From contig CACXNV010000003.1 of NCBI GenBank assembly GCA_902769185.1, positions 1 to 62,998 of the forward strand: a DNA stretch of 62,998 nucleotides, read 5' to 3'. Position 1 is the stretch's first letter, and the number at the start of each line of letters is the position of its first letter. A program made the position numbers and the translations under genes. Shown here piece by piece: positions 40,212 to 46,187 of this stretch. The notes beneath the pieces are model-generated. The model was not told the DNA's origin. It ran no database searches and saw only the letters and a program-made list of their open reading frames with translations. The stretch comes from an uncultured Erysipelotrichaceae bacterium. Its GTDB lineage: Bacteria; Bacillota_I; Bacilli_A; RFN20; CAG-826.

Positions 40212-42086
40212 ATGGACTATCAAGTGATTGTTGTTGGTGGTGGACATGCTGGCTTAGAAGCGGCTTTTGCTAGTGCTCATATGGGCATGAAAACACTTTT
40301 AGTATCCATTAATATCAAGATGATGGGTAATATGCCTTGTAATCCTTCTATTGGAGGATCTGCAAAAGGAATAGTGGTTCGTGAGATTGACGCGCTAGGT
40401 GGAATGATGGGAATTGCAGCCGATCATCACTATTTACAAATGAAAATGCTTAATACTGGAAAAGGCCCAGGAGTGCAGTGTTTAAGAGCCCAACAAGATA
40501 AGCTCGAATATCCAAAATTCCTGCAGGAGGCCGCCTTAAATTGTAAAAATCTCACTGTTGTTGAAGGAATTGTAAATGAATTAATTCACGATGATAGTCG
40601 TGTTTTTGGAGTTAAGTTAACTGATGGAAGAAGCTATACTTCTGAAGCAGTTATTTTAAGTACAGGAACATATATGGAATCTTATATCTTTAGAGGCCAT
40701 AAAAAGATTCAACAAGGTCCAGATGGAGAAAAGCCTTCTTTAGGTTTATCACCATATTTAAGAAAGATGGGTATAGAAACTTATCGTCTTAAAACAGGTA
40801 CTCCTCCTAGAATTAAAAAAGACTCAATAGATTTTTCCAAAGCAAAATTAGAACCTGGCACTAAAGGACATTTAGCCTTTTCATATACCACAAAGGAATT
40901 TATTCCTTTAGAAGAACAAGAACCATGTTATTTGATATACACTAATCAAACTACTCATAACATCATTAAAGAACATTTAGATGAAACTGCTTTATATAGT
41001 GGAAATATTGTAGGAGTGGGTCCGAGATATTGTCCGTCTATTGAATCTAAAATCATGACTTTTAAGGATAAAGAAAGACATCAATTATTCTTAGAACCTG
41101 AATCTAGATATACTGACTCAATTTATTTACAAGGCTTCTCTACTAGTATGAGCGAAGAAGTGCAAGAGTTGATGGTGAGATCTTTACCAGGATTTGAAAA
41201 CGCAGTATTTCTTAAATACGCTTATGCGATTGAATATGATGCGATTAAAACTACAGAATATGGTCCAACTCTTGAATTAAAGAAGTGGCCAGGATTATAT
41301 ATTGCTGGTCAAATATGCGGCACATCTGGCTATGAAGAAGCAGCTGGACTTGGTTTATTAGCGGGTATTAATGCTTCTTTAAAAATTCAAGGAAAAGAGC
41401 CACTTATTTTAAGAAGAGATCAATCCTATATTGGAGTGATGATTGATGATTTAGTCACTAAAGGAACTGAAGAACCTTATAGGTTACTTTCTTCTAGAGC
41501 GGAGTTCCGCCTTTTACTTAGACACGATAATGCAGATTTAAGATTAACAGATATAGGTCATCAAATTGGTTTGATATCTGAAGATAGATATAAGTACTTC
41601 TTAAAGAAGAAACAAAATATTAAAGAAGTATGTGAAATATTAGAGTCAACTTATTTAGGTAAAAGAAAAGATGTTGAAGAATATATTATGTCTTTAGGCT
41701 TTAATGAACTTAAAGGTGGGATATTAGCCTCTGAGTTACTTAAACGTCCAGGAGTGGAATATACTAAACTCGCTCAATTTATTCCTGAATTAGATAAATA
41801 TGATTTAGATGAACAAACTATTGAAGAGATAGAAATCATTGAAAAATATGAAGGCTATATTGTTAAACAAAAACGTGATGCAGAAAATCATCAAAAGTTA
41901 GAAGAACTAAAAATACCTAGTGATATTGATTATATCAATATGTCTGGAATTAGATTAGAAGCTAGAGAAAAACTAAATAAAATTAGACCTCTTACTGTTG
42001 GTCAGGCTAGTAGAATCGCTGGAGTTAATCCTAGTGATATCTCTATGTTAATATTAAATATAAAGAAGATTCTTAATCATGACTAA
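40212..42086 (+). CDS. mnmG: tRNA uridine-5-carboxymethylaminomethyl modification enzyme MnmG
   Basis: This 624-residue FAD enzyme starts at the ATG at 40212; the frame also opens with a GTG inside sufB, but that would add residues before the conserved MDYQVIVVGGGHAGLEAA start. The second signature block is PCNPSIGGSAKGIVVREIDALGG, and ICGTSGYEEAAGLGLLAG marks the FAD site. With MnmE it modifies the wobble uridine of tRNAs. The mnmG-rsmG pair with an 8-base overlap is a widespread arrangement. Confidence 0.97.
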   Translation: MDYQVIVVGGGHAGLEAAFASAHMGMKTLLVSINIKMMGNMPCNPSIGGSAKGIVVREIDALGGMMGIAADHHYLQMKMLNTGKGPGVQCLRAQQDKLEYPKFLQEAALNCKNLTVVEGIVNELIHDDSRVFGVKLTDGRSYTSEAVILSTGTYMESYIFRGHKKIQQGPDGEKPSLGLSPYLRKMGIETYRLKTGTPPRIKKDSIDFSKAKLEPGTKGHLAFSYTTKEFIPLEEQEPCYLIYTNQTTHNIIKEHLDETALYSGNIVGVGPRYCPSIESKIMTFKDKERHQLFLEPESRYTDSIYLQGFSTSMSEEVQELMVRSLPGFENAVFLKYAYAIEYDAIKTTEYGPTLELKKWPGLYIAGQICGTSGYEEAAGLGLLAGINASLKIQGKEPLILRRDQSYIGVMIDDLVTKGTEEPYRLLSSRAEFRLLLRHDNADLRLTDIGHQIGLISEDRYKYFLKKKQNIKEVCEILESTYLGKRKDVEEYIMSLGFNELKGGILASELLKRPGVEYTKLAQFIPELDKYDLDEQTIEEIEIIEKYEGYIVKQKRDAENHQKLEELKIPSDIDYINMSGIRLEAREKLNKIRPLTVGQASRIAGVNPSDISMLILNIKKILNHD

Positions 42087-42765
42087 GCAAGAATTAGTAA
42101 TGGAACTAGATAAACTAAATTTAGATTCCTCTAAAGTAGATAAGTTAGAAGAATATATGTTAGCGACTTTAAAAGTTAATGAGTCTTTTAATTTAACTGC
42201 AATTAAAGAAGAGAATAAATTTAGAGAACTCATGATTTTAGATAGTGCTTATCCACTTAAATATTTTGATTTCACTAATAAAAAAGTTATTGATATAGGT
42301 ACTGGGGCTGGCTATCCAGGAATGGTGCTTGCAACTTTATCTAAAGGAGAATTTACTTTATTAGATTCTACTAAAAAGAAGATTGATTTCATAAGCAATT
42401 ACGCGACGGAGCACGGCTATTTTAATGTAAAAACTGTTATTGATCGGGCTGAAAACTACGCTAAAAAACATAGAGAAGAATTTGACTTTGCAGTCGCTCG
42501 CGCTGTATCGGAATTACCTATTTTAATTGAATTAATTATTCCTCTACTTAAAGTTGGAGGATGTTTCATTGCTTTAAAAGGATCTAAAGGTTTAGAAGAA
42601 TTAAATAAATCTAAAAAAGTATTATCTAATCTAGGCGCGGAAGTGGAACTTATTGATGAATATGAACTTCCTGAATCGAAAGAAAAAAGAATTAATATCG
42701 TCATTAAAAAAATAAAGAAAACCAATCTTAAATATCCTCGTCCTTATAATGAGATAATTAAATAA
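42079..42765 (+). CDS. rsmG: 16S rRNA m7G527 methyltransferase RsmG
   Basis: This 228-residue SAM-dependent methyltransferase has the family core NLTAIKEENKF, VIDIGTGAGYPGMVLA (SAM loop) and the catalytic-site block RAVSELPILIELIIPLLK with GGCFIALKGSKG. It methylates G527 of 16S rRNA. Its start overlaps mnmG by 8 bases. It is the last gene of the suf-mnmG-rsmG run; the 41-base repeat that follows contains a palindrome with T-run that might stop its transcript. Confidence 0.96.
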   Translation: MTKQELVMELDKLNLDSSKVDKLEEYMLATLKVNESFNLTAIKEENKFRELMILDSAYPLKYFDFTNKKVIDIGTGAGYPGMVLATLSKGEFTLLDSTKKKIDFISNYATEHGYFNVKTVIDRAENYAKKHREEFDFAVARAVSELPILIELIIPLLKVGGCFIALKGSKGLEELNKSKKVLSNLGAEVELIDEYELPESKEKRINIVIKKIKKTNLKYPRPYNEIIK

Positions 42766-42774
42766 TTAACAAAG

Positions 42775-42815
42775 TTAACATCTATGATATTGACAAAAGT
42801 TGTTAACTTTTTTAA
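42775..42815 (+). repeat. Copy 1 of a 41-bp direct repeat flanking the HipA-like gene
   Basis: Copy 1 (42775-42815) and copy 2 (44130-44170) match from TTAACA to CTTTTTTA apart from a few positions (T/A near the start, GA/TG in the middle). Both contain the palindrome AAAAGTT-GTT-AACTTTT. The two copies lie on either side of the gene at 42825-44126. Confidence 0.75.
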
Positions 42816-42818
42816 TAT
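42790..42818 (+). promoter_or_regulatory. Promoter with operator-like palindrome for the HipA-like gene
   Basis: TTGACA (42790-42795), 17 bases, then TAATAT (42813-42818); the ATG is 6 bases after the -10 box. The spacer is almost entirely the palindrome AAAAGTT-GTT-AACTTTT (42795-42811), so a protein bound there would block RNA polymerase. A TATAAT 3 bases further on is too close to the ATG to be the box used. Confidence 0.6.
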
Positions 42819-42824
42819 AATTTT

Positions 42825-44126
42825 ATGAAAACTTTTGAAAGTGTATTAAATGAATATAACTCTCTTCCTAGCGGTAATGTTTATATAAAAGTTATTAAGG
42901 GAAATACTTATTTTTATTATCAATTTTCTGATAATGGAAAAAAGATTACAAAATATATTTCTAAAGATGAATATGATGATCTATTAATTAAAATCAATCA
43001 TAAAAAAGAATTGTCTAAATTCATTAAAGAAAATCTTAAAGATGAGAATCGTTCTTTATTTTTATCTAATTCCGCTAGAAATCTAACTGGGTATCTCATG
43101 TTGGAAGATAAAATTATTGGGGAATTTGAAAATGGACAATTGATTAAAGGAAATGAAAAACTATTACCTTTAATTATTAAAAGAACTAAACAATTAAATA
43201 AGTTTTTACAAACTAGAGTAATTGACACTAGTAGAACCAACGCCCGTTTATTAAAAAAAGCGCTTAATATCCATGAAGAAAACGATGAATTATTATCAAT
43301 TTATTCTTATGCGGTGAGCATAACTGATAATTATTGGTTTAAGCCAAAAAAATCAAAACTTAAATATAAAGATGTACAGTTTAAAAATGATGTCTTATTT
43401 GATGTTTCTTTAAAAGGAAGTTTATCTTATTTTCCTAGAAAGGTTGTCTTGTCGCCTGAATTAACTACCGGCGGAAGCTTTGAAAAAGGATGGAAAAGAA
43501 TTGATAATGAGTGGTGGTTATATAAAGTTGGAACTGATAATGAGAAATTTTCAGAACTCTTTTACGCAACTTTGTTAGAGGAGTTAAATATTCCAACTGC
43601 TCATTATGAACTAGATGATAAATATATAAGAAGTAAGAATTTCGCAGTTGGTTATAATTACGAACCAATGTATTCACTTATGGATGATAATGATGATTAT
43701 AACGATGTTTTAACTGAGCTAATGAAAATTAGTAAAGATATCGCTAGACAATACATGGTTCTAATTTATTTTGATGCATTACTTAATAATGTTGATCGAC
43801 ATAACGAGAACTATGGGCTTTTAAAGGATAAAAAAACTGGATCTATAATTTCTTTAGCGCCTAATTTTGATAACAATTTATGTCTTATAAGTAGAAATGA
43901 GATTTTAAATTGCTCTATCAAAGAAGGATTTTTATCTTATTTTCTTAAATTCTTAAAATCCAATCAGTTAGCTAAAGATTTATTAAAAGAATCAAATCTT
44001 CCTAGAATCAATGAAAGCATCTTAAATAAATGTTTTAACAAAATATCTATTAAAGTTAATGAAAAGATGATTAGAGAGTTTATTTTATCAAGACAAAAAT
44101 ATTTGTTTGATGAAATATTTAAATAA
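42825..44126 (+). CDS. HipA-like serine/threonine kinase, stand-alone
   Basis: The protein has 433 residues. The C-terminal 250 residues have the HipA/CtkA kinase pattern: ELTTGGSFEKGW (phosphate loop region), WWLYKVGTDNEKFSELFYA, then FDALLNNVDRHNENYGLL with catalytic D324 and SLAPNFDNNL with metal-binding D349. The first 170 residues are not the usual HipA N-terminal domain and match nothing I know. There is no HipB antitoxin gene beside it. HipA kinases phosphorylate tRNA synthetases and halt growth; others act on host proteins. The gene lies between two copies of a 41-bp repeat, and its promoter contains a palindrome, so control by a distant regulator or by itself is possible. The mRNA seems leaderless. 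Confidence 0.72.
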   Translation: MKTFESVLNEYNSLPSGNVYIKVIKGNTYFYYQFSDNGKKITKYISKDEYDDLLIKINHKKELSKFIKENLKDENRSLFLSNSARNLTGYLMLEDKIIGEFENGQLIKGNEKLLPLIIKRTKQLNKFLQTRVIDTSRTNARLLKKALNIHEENDELLSIYSYAVSITDNYWFKPKKSKLKYKDVQFKNDVLFDVSLKGSLSYFPRKVVLSPELTTGGSFEKGWKRIDNEWWLYKVGTDNEKFSELFYATLLEELNIPTAHYELDDKYIRSKNFAVGYNYEPMYSLMDDNDDYNDVLTELMKISKDIARQYMVLIYFDALLNNVDRHNENYGLLKDKKTGSIISLAPNFDNNLCLISRNEILNCSIKEGFLSYFLKFLKSNQLAKDLLKESNLPRINESILNKCFNKISIKVNEKMIREFILSRQKYLFDEIFK

Positions 44127-44129
44127 AAT

Positions 44130-44170
44130 TTAACAACTATGATATTTGCAAAAGTTGTTAACTTTTTTAT
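44130..44170 (+). repeat. Copy 2 of the 41-bp repeat, likely promoter of the riboflavin transporter
   Basis: It aligns with copy 1 at 42775-42815. The -35-like box is TTTGCA (44145-44150), the palindrome is at 44150-44166 and a weak -10, TATCGT, lies at 44168-44173. Transcription would begin about 30 bases before the FMN riboswitch. The palindrome plus T-run could instead terminate the HipA-like transcript. Confidence 0.6.
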
Positions 44171-44212
44171 CGTATTTATTGATATCTATTTTATTAATAC
44201 TTAAAATGTAAT

Positions 44213-44369
44213 TACTTCAGGGCAGCGAATTAACGCGACCGGCGGTATACCCCGCAAGCTAAATAGCATGAACTAGTGAAATTCTAGTGGCGACAGTAAA
44301 GTCTGGATGAGAGAAGTATATAGAATCTATTTTCTATTATGTAGCCCCTGAAGTAGAGGGCTATTTTTT
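44213..44369 (+). ncRNA. FMN riboswitch with terminator/SD-sequestering platform
   Basis: The aptamer runs from 44213 to 44318. P1 is TACTTC (44213-44218) with GAAGTA (44313-44318). The conserved FMN-element blocks are present: GACCGGCGGTATACCCCGC, then AACTAGTGAAATTCTAGT and GCGACAGTAAAGTC, GGATGAGAG. The platform is TAGCCC (44342-44347) with GGGCTA (44358-44363) and six T; the GAGGG in its 3' arm is also the SD of the next gene. ACTTCAGGG (44214-44222) can pair with CCCTGAAGT (44345-44353), which would break both P1 and the terminator and free the SD. With FMN bound, expression should be off. Confidence 0.93.
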
Positions 44370-45125
44370 ATGGATTCAAATGAGTTAAAAGCTTTTATGG
44401 GCTGGTTTAAATGGGTATTATTCGCTCTAATGATAGTGGCGGTAATCCTTTTGGTGTTCTTTTCTATTAGAAGTTTTAAAAAGAAAAAAGTTAATCCTAG
44501 TAAGTTTATCGCTGTAACAGGTATATTTGCGGCATTGTCCGTTCTTTTATATGTTGTTATACCAGATTTTGGATTAGGATTTACTCCATTTTGGTTAAAG
44601 GTTCATCTAGATGAAATTCCAATGTTTTTAGCAGGTTATATGTATGGACCGTTATCCGCGATTATGATTAATCTAACTAAAACGCTTATTAAGTTACCAA
44701 TGTCTTCAACGGCATGTGTCGGAGAAATTGGAGACTTCATCTTCTCTTTAATTTTTGTGATACCTGCAGTGATTCTCTACGAGAAAAGAAGAAAACTATC
44801 ATCAGTATTTATTGGAACTGGAATATCTACGGCAGCCCATATCATTTTCGCGATGATCTTTAATGTTTATGTTATGGTCCCATTCTTCTCTTATTTTTAT
44901 AATTATCCTTTAGAAGGATTAGAGAAAGCATGTTCTGCAATTATTCCTGCAGTGAGTGGAGAGAATTGGATTTGGATGTACGCTCTTATCATGGTTGCGC
45001 CTATGAACTTAATTAAGGATGCGATAGTGTTCTTAGTTGTCCTTCTTTTATATAAAAGGCTACATATCCTTATTAATAGAATTGGCTCTAGGAACGATAA
45101 TTCGATACCAAAAGAGCAAAATTAG
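44370..45125 (+). CDS. ribU: Riboflavin ECF transporter S component RibU
   Basis: This 251-residue membrane protein has about six helices. The family signature appears in GIFAALSVLLYVVIP and in FWLKVHLDEIPMFLAGYMYG, followed by KLPMSSTACVGEIGDF. The S component binds riboflavin and works with the shared EcfA/A'/T module coded elsewhere. It has an extra N-terminal helix (about 12-33) not found in the shortest family members. Its start codon is directly after the T-run of the FMN riboswitch, which supports the substrate assignment strongly. Confidence 0.93.
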   Translation: MDSNELKAFMGWFKWVLFALMIVAVILLVFFSIRSFKKKKVNPSKFIAVTGIFAALSVLLYVVIPDFGLGFTPFWLKVHLDEIPMFLAGYMYGPLSAIMINLTKTLIKLPMSSTACVGEIGDFIFSLIFVIPAVILYEKRRKLSSVFIGTGISTAAHIIFAMIFNVYVMVPFFSYFYNYPLEGLEKACSAIIPAVSGENWIWMYALIMVAPMNLIKDAIVFLVVLLLYKRLHILINRIGSRNDNSIPKEQN

Positions 45126-45223: not shown

Positions 45224-45274
45224 ACCGGTTGATATACCTGTCTTAATTGATGTGAGTTCGATACCGGTTTTTTT
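45224..45274 (+). terminator. Possible terminator after ribU
   Basis: ACCGGT (45224-45229) and ACCGGT (45263-45268) can pair, with GAT/ATC extending the stem, followed by seven T. The loop is long, so the call is weak. A second weak hairpin (AGGGCAT with ATGCCT, 45130-45153) lies just after ribU. Confidence 0.4.
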
Positions 45275-46187
45275 ATGAAGTTTTATCAACTAGTTCTAAT
45301 AATATATTTATGATTTCCTTGTTCTCATTTTTAATTATATTAAACATTTTTTTGCCAATATAATTTAAAGACGCGCCTAGTTGAAAGCATTCTTCATTAT
45401 CAATAATTAAATATCTATCATGGTTATCATCCAGATGCTTGACATCAATCTTTCCATATTGTAATTCAAATTTTTCTATTTCATCTGTATCTAATTTTGA
45501 TAATTTGCTTATACAAACTGTAAGATGGGCTGTTTCGTTTTTATTTTTTAAGAAAACAAACGCTCTAGAATCACAATATGGATCGATTAAAATAATTGAG
45601 CTGTTTGCTTTTCTAATAATCTCAGATATAAATTCATACGCATCATAAAATTGTCCAGCAAAAAAGAGAGCCTGTTTCGGCAAATCAACTTTGCTTATGA
45701 GTTTTAGAATCTCATCAAATTTATTGTTTGTTTCATTTTCGAATTCAATTTGTCTATTTTGAAGTTTTGCAAGTGTAAACAAAGCGTCGCCATTTTCTAA
45801 AATTAATTTCCGCATTTGAATAAACTTTCTAGCGATTTCGACACTCATTTTATTTGCATTGTCGCTTTTTAATACTCCAGCAAGAGCGATAATACCTTCT
45901 TCTGTATAAACATAAGGATTATATCTTCTTTTAGAAGATAAAAATTTTGCTGTGCCAATTTGGCATCGCAAATAATTAATATCTTTGTTTTGCAGCTGGA
46001 AACAAAAATCGTCAGGAAATCTTTCTTTGTTTCTTCTCATTTGCCTATTCATTATTGAAACTGTAGTTCCAAAAAAGAAAGCAATATCACTATCTATCAT
46101 TACTTGTCGCCCTCTTATGTTATATATACAATCTTCTATATTTTTGTTTTCGATTGAATTCAACATTAATAATTGGTTTTTATCCAT
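45273..46187 (-). CDS. ORF6N-domain protein with PLD-like C-terminal region
   Basis: The protein has 304 residues. The N-terminal ORF6N domain (about 20-110) is clear: IYNIRGRQVMIDSDIAFFFG, MRRNKERFPDDFCFQL and YVYTEEGIIALAGVLKS. ORF6N is a DNA-binding domain common in phages and mobile islands. A helical linker follows, then a C-terminal region (about 180-304) with IILIDPYCDSRAFVFL and HDRYLIIDNEECFQLGASL, resembling half of a phospholipase-D-type nuclease site (H-x-x-x-x-x-D). It may be a DNA-binding nuclease or regulator of a mobile unit. AAAGGAGA precedes the ATG, with TATAAT further upstream on the minus strand. Confidence 0.7.
   Translation of the reverse strand: MDKNQLLMLNSIENKNIEDCIYNIRGRQVMIDSDIAFFFGTTVSIMNRQMRRNKERFPDDFCFQLQNKDINYLRCQIGTAKFLSSKRRYNPYVYTEEGIIALAGVLKSDNANKMSVEIARKFIQMRKLILENGDALFTLAKLQNRQIEFENETNNKFDEILKLISKVDLPKQALFFAGQFYDAYEFISEIIRKANSSIILIDPYCDSRAFVFLKNKNETAHLTVCISKLSKLDTDEIEKFELQYGKIDVKHLDDNHDRYLIIDNEECFQLGASLNYIGKKMFNIIKNENKEIINILLELVDKTS

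What the first reader, a model, noticed from the sequence alone, without database searches (positions are those of the whole stretch)
42775..44170. HipA-like kinase gene flanked by duplicated promoter/operator repeats
Two 41-bp copies with few mismatches flank exactly one gene. In copy 1 the palindrome fills the spacer of a good promoter (TTGACA-17-TAATAT). In copy 2 the same palindrome sits between TTTGCA and TATCGT ahead of the FMN riboswitch. It looks as if the kinase gene was inserted with duplication of the ribU promoter, placing a growth-arrest kinase and riboflavin uptake under one regulator; or the repeats are a recombination or excision site.
Basis: partly seen in the sequence, partly recalled or inferred. 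Interest (0 to 1): 0.65.

Follow-up and report, generated by a model that had tools for sequence, protein, structure and literature searches.

The report
Excisable kinase gene between direct repeats
A single HipA-like protein-kinase gene in an uncultured gut bacterium sits between two nearly identical short palindromic DNA repeats. The same arrangement recurs at about two dozen unrelated chromosomal places in related bacteria, and where a relative has lost the gene one repeat can remain, so this looks like a minimal single-gene mobile cassette whose end repeat also carries its promoter.

Summary
In detail: two direct 44-nt copies (91% identical) bracket one HipA/CtkA-like kinase ORF and occur nowhere else in the genome. 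They belong to a family of imperfect palindromes (about 33 nt, 9-bp covarying arms) found around homologous kinases in this bacterial family. Where the locus can be read, 25 of 29 kinases carry the pair: the upstream copy at a near-fixed distance over the -35 of a promoter whose -10 ends about 6 nt before the ATG, the downstream copy starting at or near the stop codon. There are about 24 unrelated insertion sites. The two copies at one locus match each other (94%) far better than copies from other loci (81%; 0 of 20,000 shuffles). Arm type follows the kinase tree (one change) while host genera are scattered over it.

The kinase-free sister G018, nested among carriers, keeps one hybrid copy at rsmG. 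One metagenome bin holds both the filled allele and an empty allele with one copy. At recG, 29 relatives show no copy in the stretches searched. So the pair arrives with the kinase and loss can leave one copy. Autoregulation through the N-terminal domain is inferred. Shared control with ribU is not supported. How the cassette moves is unknown.

The parts
42771..42814 (+). Repeat copy 1 (upstream); model core 42775-42807; palindromic arms around the -35 of the kinase promoter
   Evidence: (R1, 43 bits)
42790..42818 (+). Kinase promoter TTGACA-17-TAATAT; the -10 ends 6 nt before the ATG, suggesting a leaderless message
   Evidence: same geometry in 21 of 25 homologous loci
42825..44126 (+). HipA/CtkA-like Ser/Thr kinase, 433 aa (K234, N322-V-D-R-H-N-E-N329, P346-N-F-D349 conserved)
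42825..43055 (+). N-terminal H-bbb-H domain, proposed to bind the repeats; absent from repeat-free Clostridia homologues
   Evidence: no significant PDB match
44126..44169 (+). Repeat copy 2 (downstream); model core 44130-44162; directly after the kinase stop codon (44124-44126)
   Evidence: (R1, 49 bits)
42079..42765 (+). rsmG, left flank of the insertion
44179..44207 (+). Likely promoter of the riboswitch transcript (TTGATA-17-TAAAAT), outside the repeat
   Evidence: the sequence next to the aptamer is kept in relatives without repeat
44209..44322 (+). FMN riboswitch, right flank
44370..45125 (+). ECF transporter S component (RibU-like), right flank
   Evidence: PF12822

Best explanation
This is a single-gene cassette: an about 33-nt imperfect palindrome, a HipA/CtkA-like kinase with an N-terminal H-bbb-H domain, and a second copy of the palindrome. 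Shown from sequence: the upstream copy carries the -35 of a promoter that appears to start the kinase without a leader, the downstream copy starts at or near the stop codon, and the unit sits at about two dozen unrelated chromosomal places in one bacterial family. Inferred: the kinase binds the palindromes through its N-terminal domain, represses itself at the upstream copy (taking the place of a HipB antitoxin as DNA-binding partner), arrests growth or acts in stress or phage defence as other HipA kinases do, and the two copies recombine so that the gene can be lost cleanly, leaving one copy. At least one loss (G018) follows from the species tree by parsimony. How new insertions arise is not known; no dedicated recombinase was found.
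For: (1) Pair around 25 of 29 readable family kinases, at near-fixed positions: upstream copy mostly at -49 to -53 from the ATG (outer copy at -73 to -76 in a few), downstream copy mostly at -4 or -11 relative to the end of the stop codon, at +2/+3 in three loci. (2) Copies at one locus 94% identical vs 81% between loci of the same arm class, 0/20,000 permutations as high. (3) Shared flanking ORFs only between four close pairs plus one polC-region pair, hence about 24 contexts. (4) Kinase tree: arm class changes once; genus labels need 11 changes where 6 is the least possible. (5) Loss: G018 (98% complete, no kinase homologue) keeps one copy, copy-1-like on the left and copy-2-like on the right, and is nested among filled G000 and G001 (99/99 and 100/97 support). 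G028 holds both alleles: contig C104 carries both flanks and one 36-nt copy, contig C183 is filled. One-copy kinase-free counterparts also at the pyrB (G188), birA (G160) and, right flank only, G166 loci. (6) Before insertion: no repeat at rsmG in the 13 other genus members whose downstream sequence is held, and none by model in the recG loci of 29 other genomes. (7) Domain link: 45 Clostridia homologues without the N-terminal domain lack the pair; the 24 of them scanned with both models have no site near the gene start, while 4 of 8 with the domain have a model-detected site directly upstream and the others visible half-sites. (8) Fold: HipA 3dnt E 2.4e-9, CtkA 3akj E 4e-8.
Against: No mobilising enzyme identified: G000 has only two tyrosine recombinases, and Y1 transposases are missing from several carriers. 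All data are from unfinished metagenome assemblies. DNA binding by the N-terminal domain is correlation only; that domain alone has no significant match in the PDB. Four family loci have only the upstream copy. About 14 solo T-class copies lie where no filled counterpart was found, so a separate function of the site is not excluded. Loss could be ordinary RecA- or slippage-mediated deletion. Toxicity is untested.
Confidence: 0.72

Rival explanations
1. The repeats are only operators of the kinase: the upstream one for autorepression, the downstream one for DNA looping or 3'-end control. Scattered loci reflect ordinary gene transfer, and pair identity reflects shared binding specificity.
For: Arm class follows the kinase tree; the upstream site exists without a downstream copy in homologues outside the family and in 4 family loci; the site spans the -35.
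Against: Does not explain single copies at kinase-free counterpart loci, nor locus-specific loop sequences shared by both copies. It can be true together with the cassette model.
Confidence: 0.2
2. Solo copies are pre-existing landing sites, and insertion duplicates the resident site (as a CRISPR repeat is duplicated at spacer insertion, or by site-specific recombination).
For: Solo sites with perfect arms occur in genomes without a detected kinase (G008, G013, G140). In G025, higBA-like genes also lie between two identical copies. In L067 and L088 an outer upstream copy, not the promoter-proximal one, matches the downstream copy best.
Against: Relatives lack any site at recG, most of the genus lacks it at rsmG, and the solo in G018 is nested among filled genomes.
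Confidence: 0.2
3. The palindromes are intrinsic terminators of rsmG and of the kinase.
For: In the window both are followed by a T-run and lie just after stop codons; RNA fold z-scores -2.9 and -1.8.
Against: The terminator scan finds none; a T-run after the downstream copy is not conserved in homologues; a fixed distance to the promoter and shared sequence upstream and downstream are not expected of terminators.
Confidence: 0.04
4. Kinase and ribU form one regulon through a duplicated promoter.
For: Adjacency in the window.
Against: Riboswitch promoter-like match outside the repeat; sequence next to the aptamer kept in repeat-free relatives; a different gene downstream in G001; other cassettes beside unrelated genes.
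Confidence: 0.03

Closest known systems
HipA of hipBA (type II toxin-antitoxin)
   Same: Kinase fold, catalytic motifs, palindromic operator over the promoter (operator in hipBA from general knowledge)
   Different: No hipB gene; proposed DNA-binding domain fused at the N-terminus and not HTH; gene bracketed by direct repeats
YjjJ (monocistronic HipA homologue with N-terminal HTH; PMC8262856)
   Same: Single-gene organisation with an N-terminal domain that may stand in for HipB
   Different: N-terminal domain is predicted H-bbb-H, not HTH; flanking repeats and patchy mobility
HipL (monocistronic, C-terminal HIRAN; PMC8262856)
   Same: Monocistronic HipA kinase with extra domains
   Different: No HIRAN domain found; extra domain is N-terminal
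CtkA of Helicobacter pylori
   Same: Only solved protein found by profile search (3akj, E 1.1e-8)
   Different: About 325 aa, aligns only with the kinase part
Integron gene cassettes with attC
   Same: Single gene followed at its stop codon by an imperfect palindrome; gene can be lost
   Different: Two near-identical copies per gene; no integron integrase seen in G000; copy absent from related loci before insertion
LTR or composite-transposon logic
   Same: Direct repeats alike within an element, different between elements; loss leaves a solo repeat
   Different: Repeats only about 33 nt and no transposition gene

Membership tests
HipA-like kinase | HipA/CtkA kinase fold | tested here: met
   AF2 pLDDT 93, 3dnt E 2.4e-9, 3akj E 4.1e-8; Pfam HipA_C 27.5 bits, below its 30.5 cut-off
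HipA-like kinase | Catalytic residues (Lys, D-x-H-x-x-N loop, metal-binding Asp) | tested here: met
   K234, D324, H326, N329, D349 invariant in the 28- and 37-sequence alignments
hipBA type II TA | Adjacent hipB antitoxin gene | tested here: not met
   One gene between the repeats; unrelated neighbours
hipBA type II TA | Toxin activity neutralised by partner | not testable with these tools
   needs expression
YjjJ | N-terminal HTH | tested here: not met
   predicted H4-13, E18-24, E27-36, E39-45, H47-76
HipL | C-terminal HIRAN domain | tested here: not met
   Pfam scan of the whole protein lists only HipA_C
Integron cassette | attC ending in GTTRRRY | tested here: inconclusive
   GTTAAAT fits; GTTAACT and GTTACAA do not
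Integron cassette | Integron integrase in genome | tested here: inconclusive
   G000 has two tyrosine recombinases (open frames 294 and 308 aa) with counterparts in kinase-free G004; not classified further
IS200/IS605-type element | Y1 transposase acting on end hairpins | tested here: not met
   no Y1_Tnp match in carriers G025, G028, G030, G171, G207
Excisable direct-repeat element | Filled and empty alleles differing by gene plus one repeat | tested here: met
   G028 C183 vs C104; G000 and G001 vs G018

The most novel reading that the evidence does not exclude
A minimal mobile element without its own recombinase: one kinase gene whose own binding site is at once promoter-operator and recombination end, with the kinase protein, through its N-terminal domain, taking part in moving or removing itself; related sites may also bracket other toxin-antitoxin genes (higBA-like unit in G025).
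Probability: 0.2. Interest if true: 0.85.

Novelty: new variant of a known kind. Interest (0 to 1): 0.6.

Why it matters
It adds a HipA-kinase architecture (a proposed DNA-binding domain fused at the N-terminus, no antitoxin gene) and shows a single-gene, recombinase-less cassette recurring at about two dozen loci in a family of uncultured gut Bacilli. The natural filled and empty alleles, the one-copy scars and the arm-type switch make autoregulation, loss and spread of an orphan toxin-like kinase directly testable.

Tried and rejected
Terminators, shared ribU regulon, dedicated tyrosine recombinase (PF00589) and Y1 transposase (PF01797) as explanations. Viral contigs gave no relative; plasmid and phage hits cover at most 80% of the protein at 24-30% identity and were not followed as cassettes. 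Resemblance to dif/Xer sites considered by eye only. Literature searches for HipA with direct repeats or cassettes gave no precedent in the titles and abstracts listed. The third genomic match to the palindrome was chance. A regex tally of sites at recG was unreliable (it missed the G168 sites), so the model search is used there instead.

Full report
Observation. The two repeats, the kinase between them, the FMN riboswitch and the promoter-like match in copy 1 are in the sequence as described. The 44-nt pair (40/44 identical) is the outstanding direct repeat of the region and its core occurs only twice in the 1.34-Mb genome.

The gene. The 433-aa ORF matches HipA_C just below the Pfam cut-off. 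AlphaFold2 on a 37-sequence alignment gives pLDDT 93 and Foldseek matches HipA (3dnt, 2.4e-9) and CtkA (3akj, 4e-8). Residues 1-77 form a helix, three strands and a long helix with no significant PDB match. PADLOC lists candidate defence models PDC-M03A (5.9e-12).

The same arrangement elsewhere. Homologues (E <= 1e-12) occur in 43 of 224 family genomes, 12 of 35 genera. In 25 of 29 readable loci the gene is bracketed by direct copies of a palindrome: upstream copy mostly at -49 to -53 from the ATG (outer copy at -73 to -76 in a few), downstream copy mostly with the stop codon inside its left arm (-4 or -11), +2/+3 in three loci including the window. Two arm classes exist, TTAACAAAC/GTTTGTTAA and GTAACCTAC/GTAGGTTAC, with inner positions covarying. 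In 21 of 25 loci the best promoter has its -35 in the site and its -10 ending 5 to 7 nt, nearly always 6 nt, before the ATG. Flanking ORFs are shared only by four close pairs and one polC-region pair, so about 24 contexts are distinct.

Pair logic. Copies at one locus are 94% identical, copies from different loci of the same class 81%; none of 20,000 class-restricted permutations reaches the observed mean. On the kinase tree the arm class changes once, while genus labels need 11 changes against a minimum of 6. So the site travels with the kinase lineage, and the two copies at each locus are kept or made alike.

Zero, one, two copies. At rsmG-FMN, G000 and G001 have kinase and two copies, G018 and G003 one copy, and the 13 other genomes with sequence downstream of rsmG none; rsmG ends at a contig end in G002 and was not found in G017. 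On an mnmG+rsmG tree G018 is sister to G001 inside the filled group (99/99, 100/97), so loss is the simpler reading there; its copy is copy-1-like on the left and copy-2-like on the right. Bin G028 holds a filled contig and an empty contig sharing both flanks and one 36-nt copy. G188 and G160 show one copy with the left flank of filled loci, G166 one copy with the right flank only. For the recG insertion in G168, I searched loci around recG from G168 and 29 other genomes with the C-class model: only G168 has sites. Downstream sequence was read for a few of these, and G144 and G141 run straight into plsX. The simplest account is that the pair comes with the kinase and loss can leave one copy.

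Solo copies. Of 45 strong T-class sites (E < 1e-6) I count by hand 19 not next to a kinase, in 16 genomes; few can be matched to a filled counterpart. G025 carries site, higBA-like genes, site, kinase, site.

Domain link. Clostridia homologues without the N-terminal domain (about 345 aa, 45 loci) show no flanking pair of this type; a 51-nt repeat around one (L218) is of another kind. Of these, 24 loci were scanned with both models: none has a site near the gene start. Eight full-length homologues from the same scan (seven outside the family set, and L208, the family member already seen as L087) have upstream sites or half-sites only; the model detects four. This supports, but does not show, that the domain binds the site.

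Riboflavin link. Not supported: the riboswitch promoter match lies outside copy 2, the sequence before the aptamer is retained without repeats, and G001 has another ECF gene downstream.

Comparison with the known. HipA homologues without an antitoxin gene are known (YjjJ with an N-terminal HTH, HipL with HIRAN; PMC8262856). This protein shares the single-gene plan but has a different N-terminal domain. I found no report of a HipA kinase bracketed by direct repeats in the library searched.

Limits. Draft metagenome assemblies; rough E-values; mechanism of insertion unknown; all functional steps inferred.

Noticed in passing
window 45273-46187 (-): ORF6N-domain protein matching the PADLOC candidate defence family PDC-S05 (6.7e-92); the corresponding stretch shown for G001 does not carry it.
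   Followed up: partly
window 44370-45125: RibU-like protein is 97% identical to that of G004 although rsmG is only 79%; nearer relatives have an 81% version (G018) or another S-component gene (G001), suggesting exchange downstream of copy 2.
   Followed up: partly
L034 1399-1839 and counterparts in 17 other genus genomes: Conserved protein of about 140 aa sharing the kinase N-terminal domain motif; TAGGTTA-like sequence just before its start codon in several species.
   Followed up: partly
L105 1501-2437 (G025:C179): HigBA-like toxin-antitoxin genes between two identical copies of the site, directly upstream of the kinase.
   Followed up: partly
L094 (G008:C3): Two identical perfect sites 109 nt apart with no kinase.
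   Followed up: no
L160 (G122): Site followed by what looks like remnants of a kinase with its middle deleted.
   Followed up: no
L065 (G136), L066 (G153), L118 (G160): A second, partial copy of the 3' end of the birA-like gene lies between the kinase cassette (or solo site) and the HAD gene.
   Followed up: partly
L218, -145 and +195 of the kinase: 51-nt direct repeat of another kind around a Clostridia homologue without the N-terminal domain.
   Followed up: no
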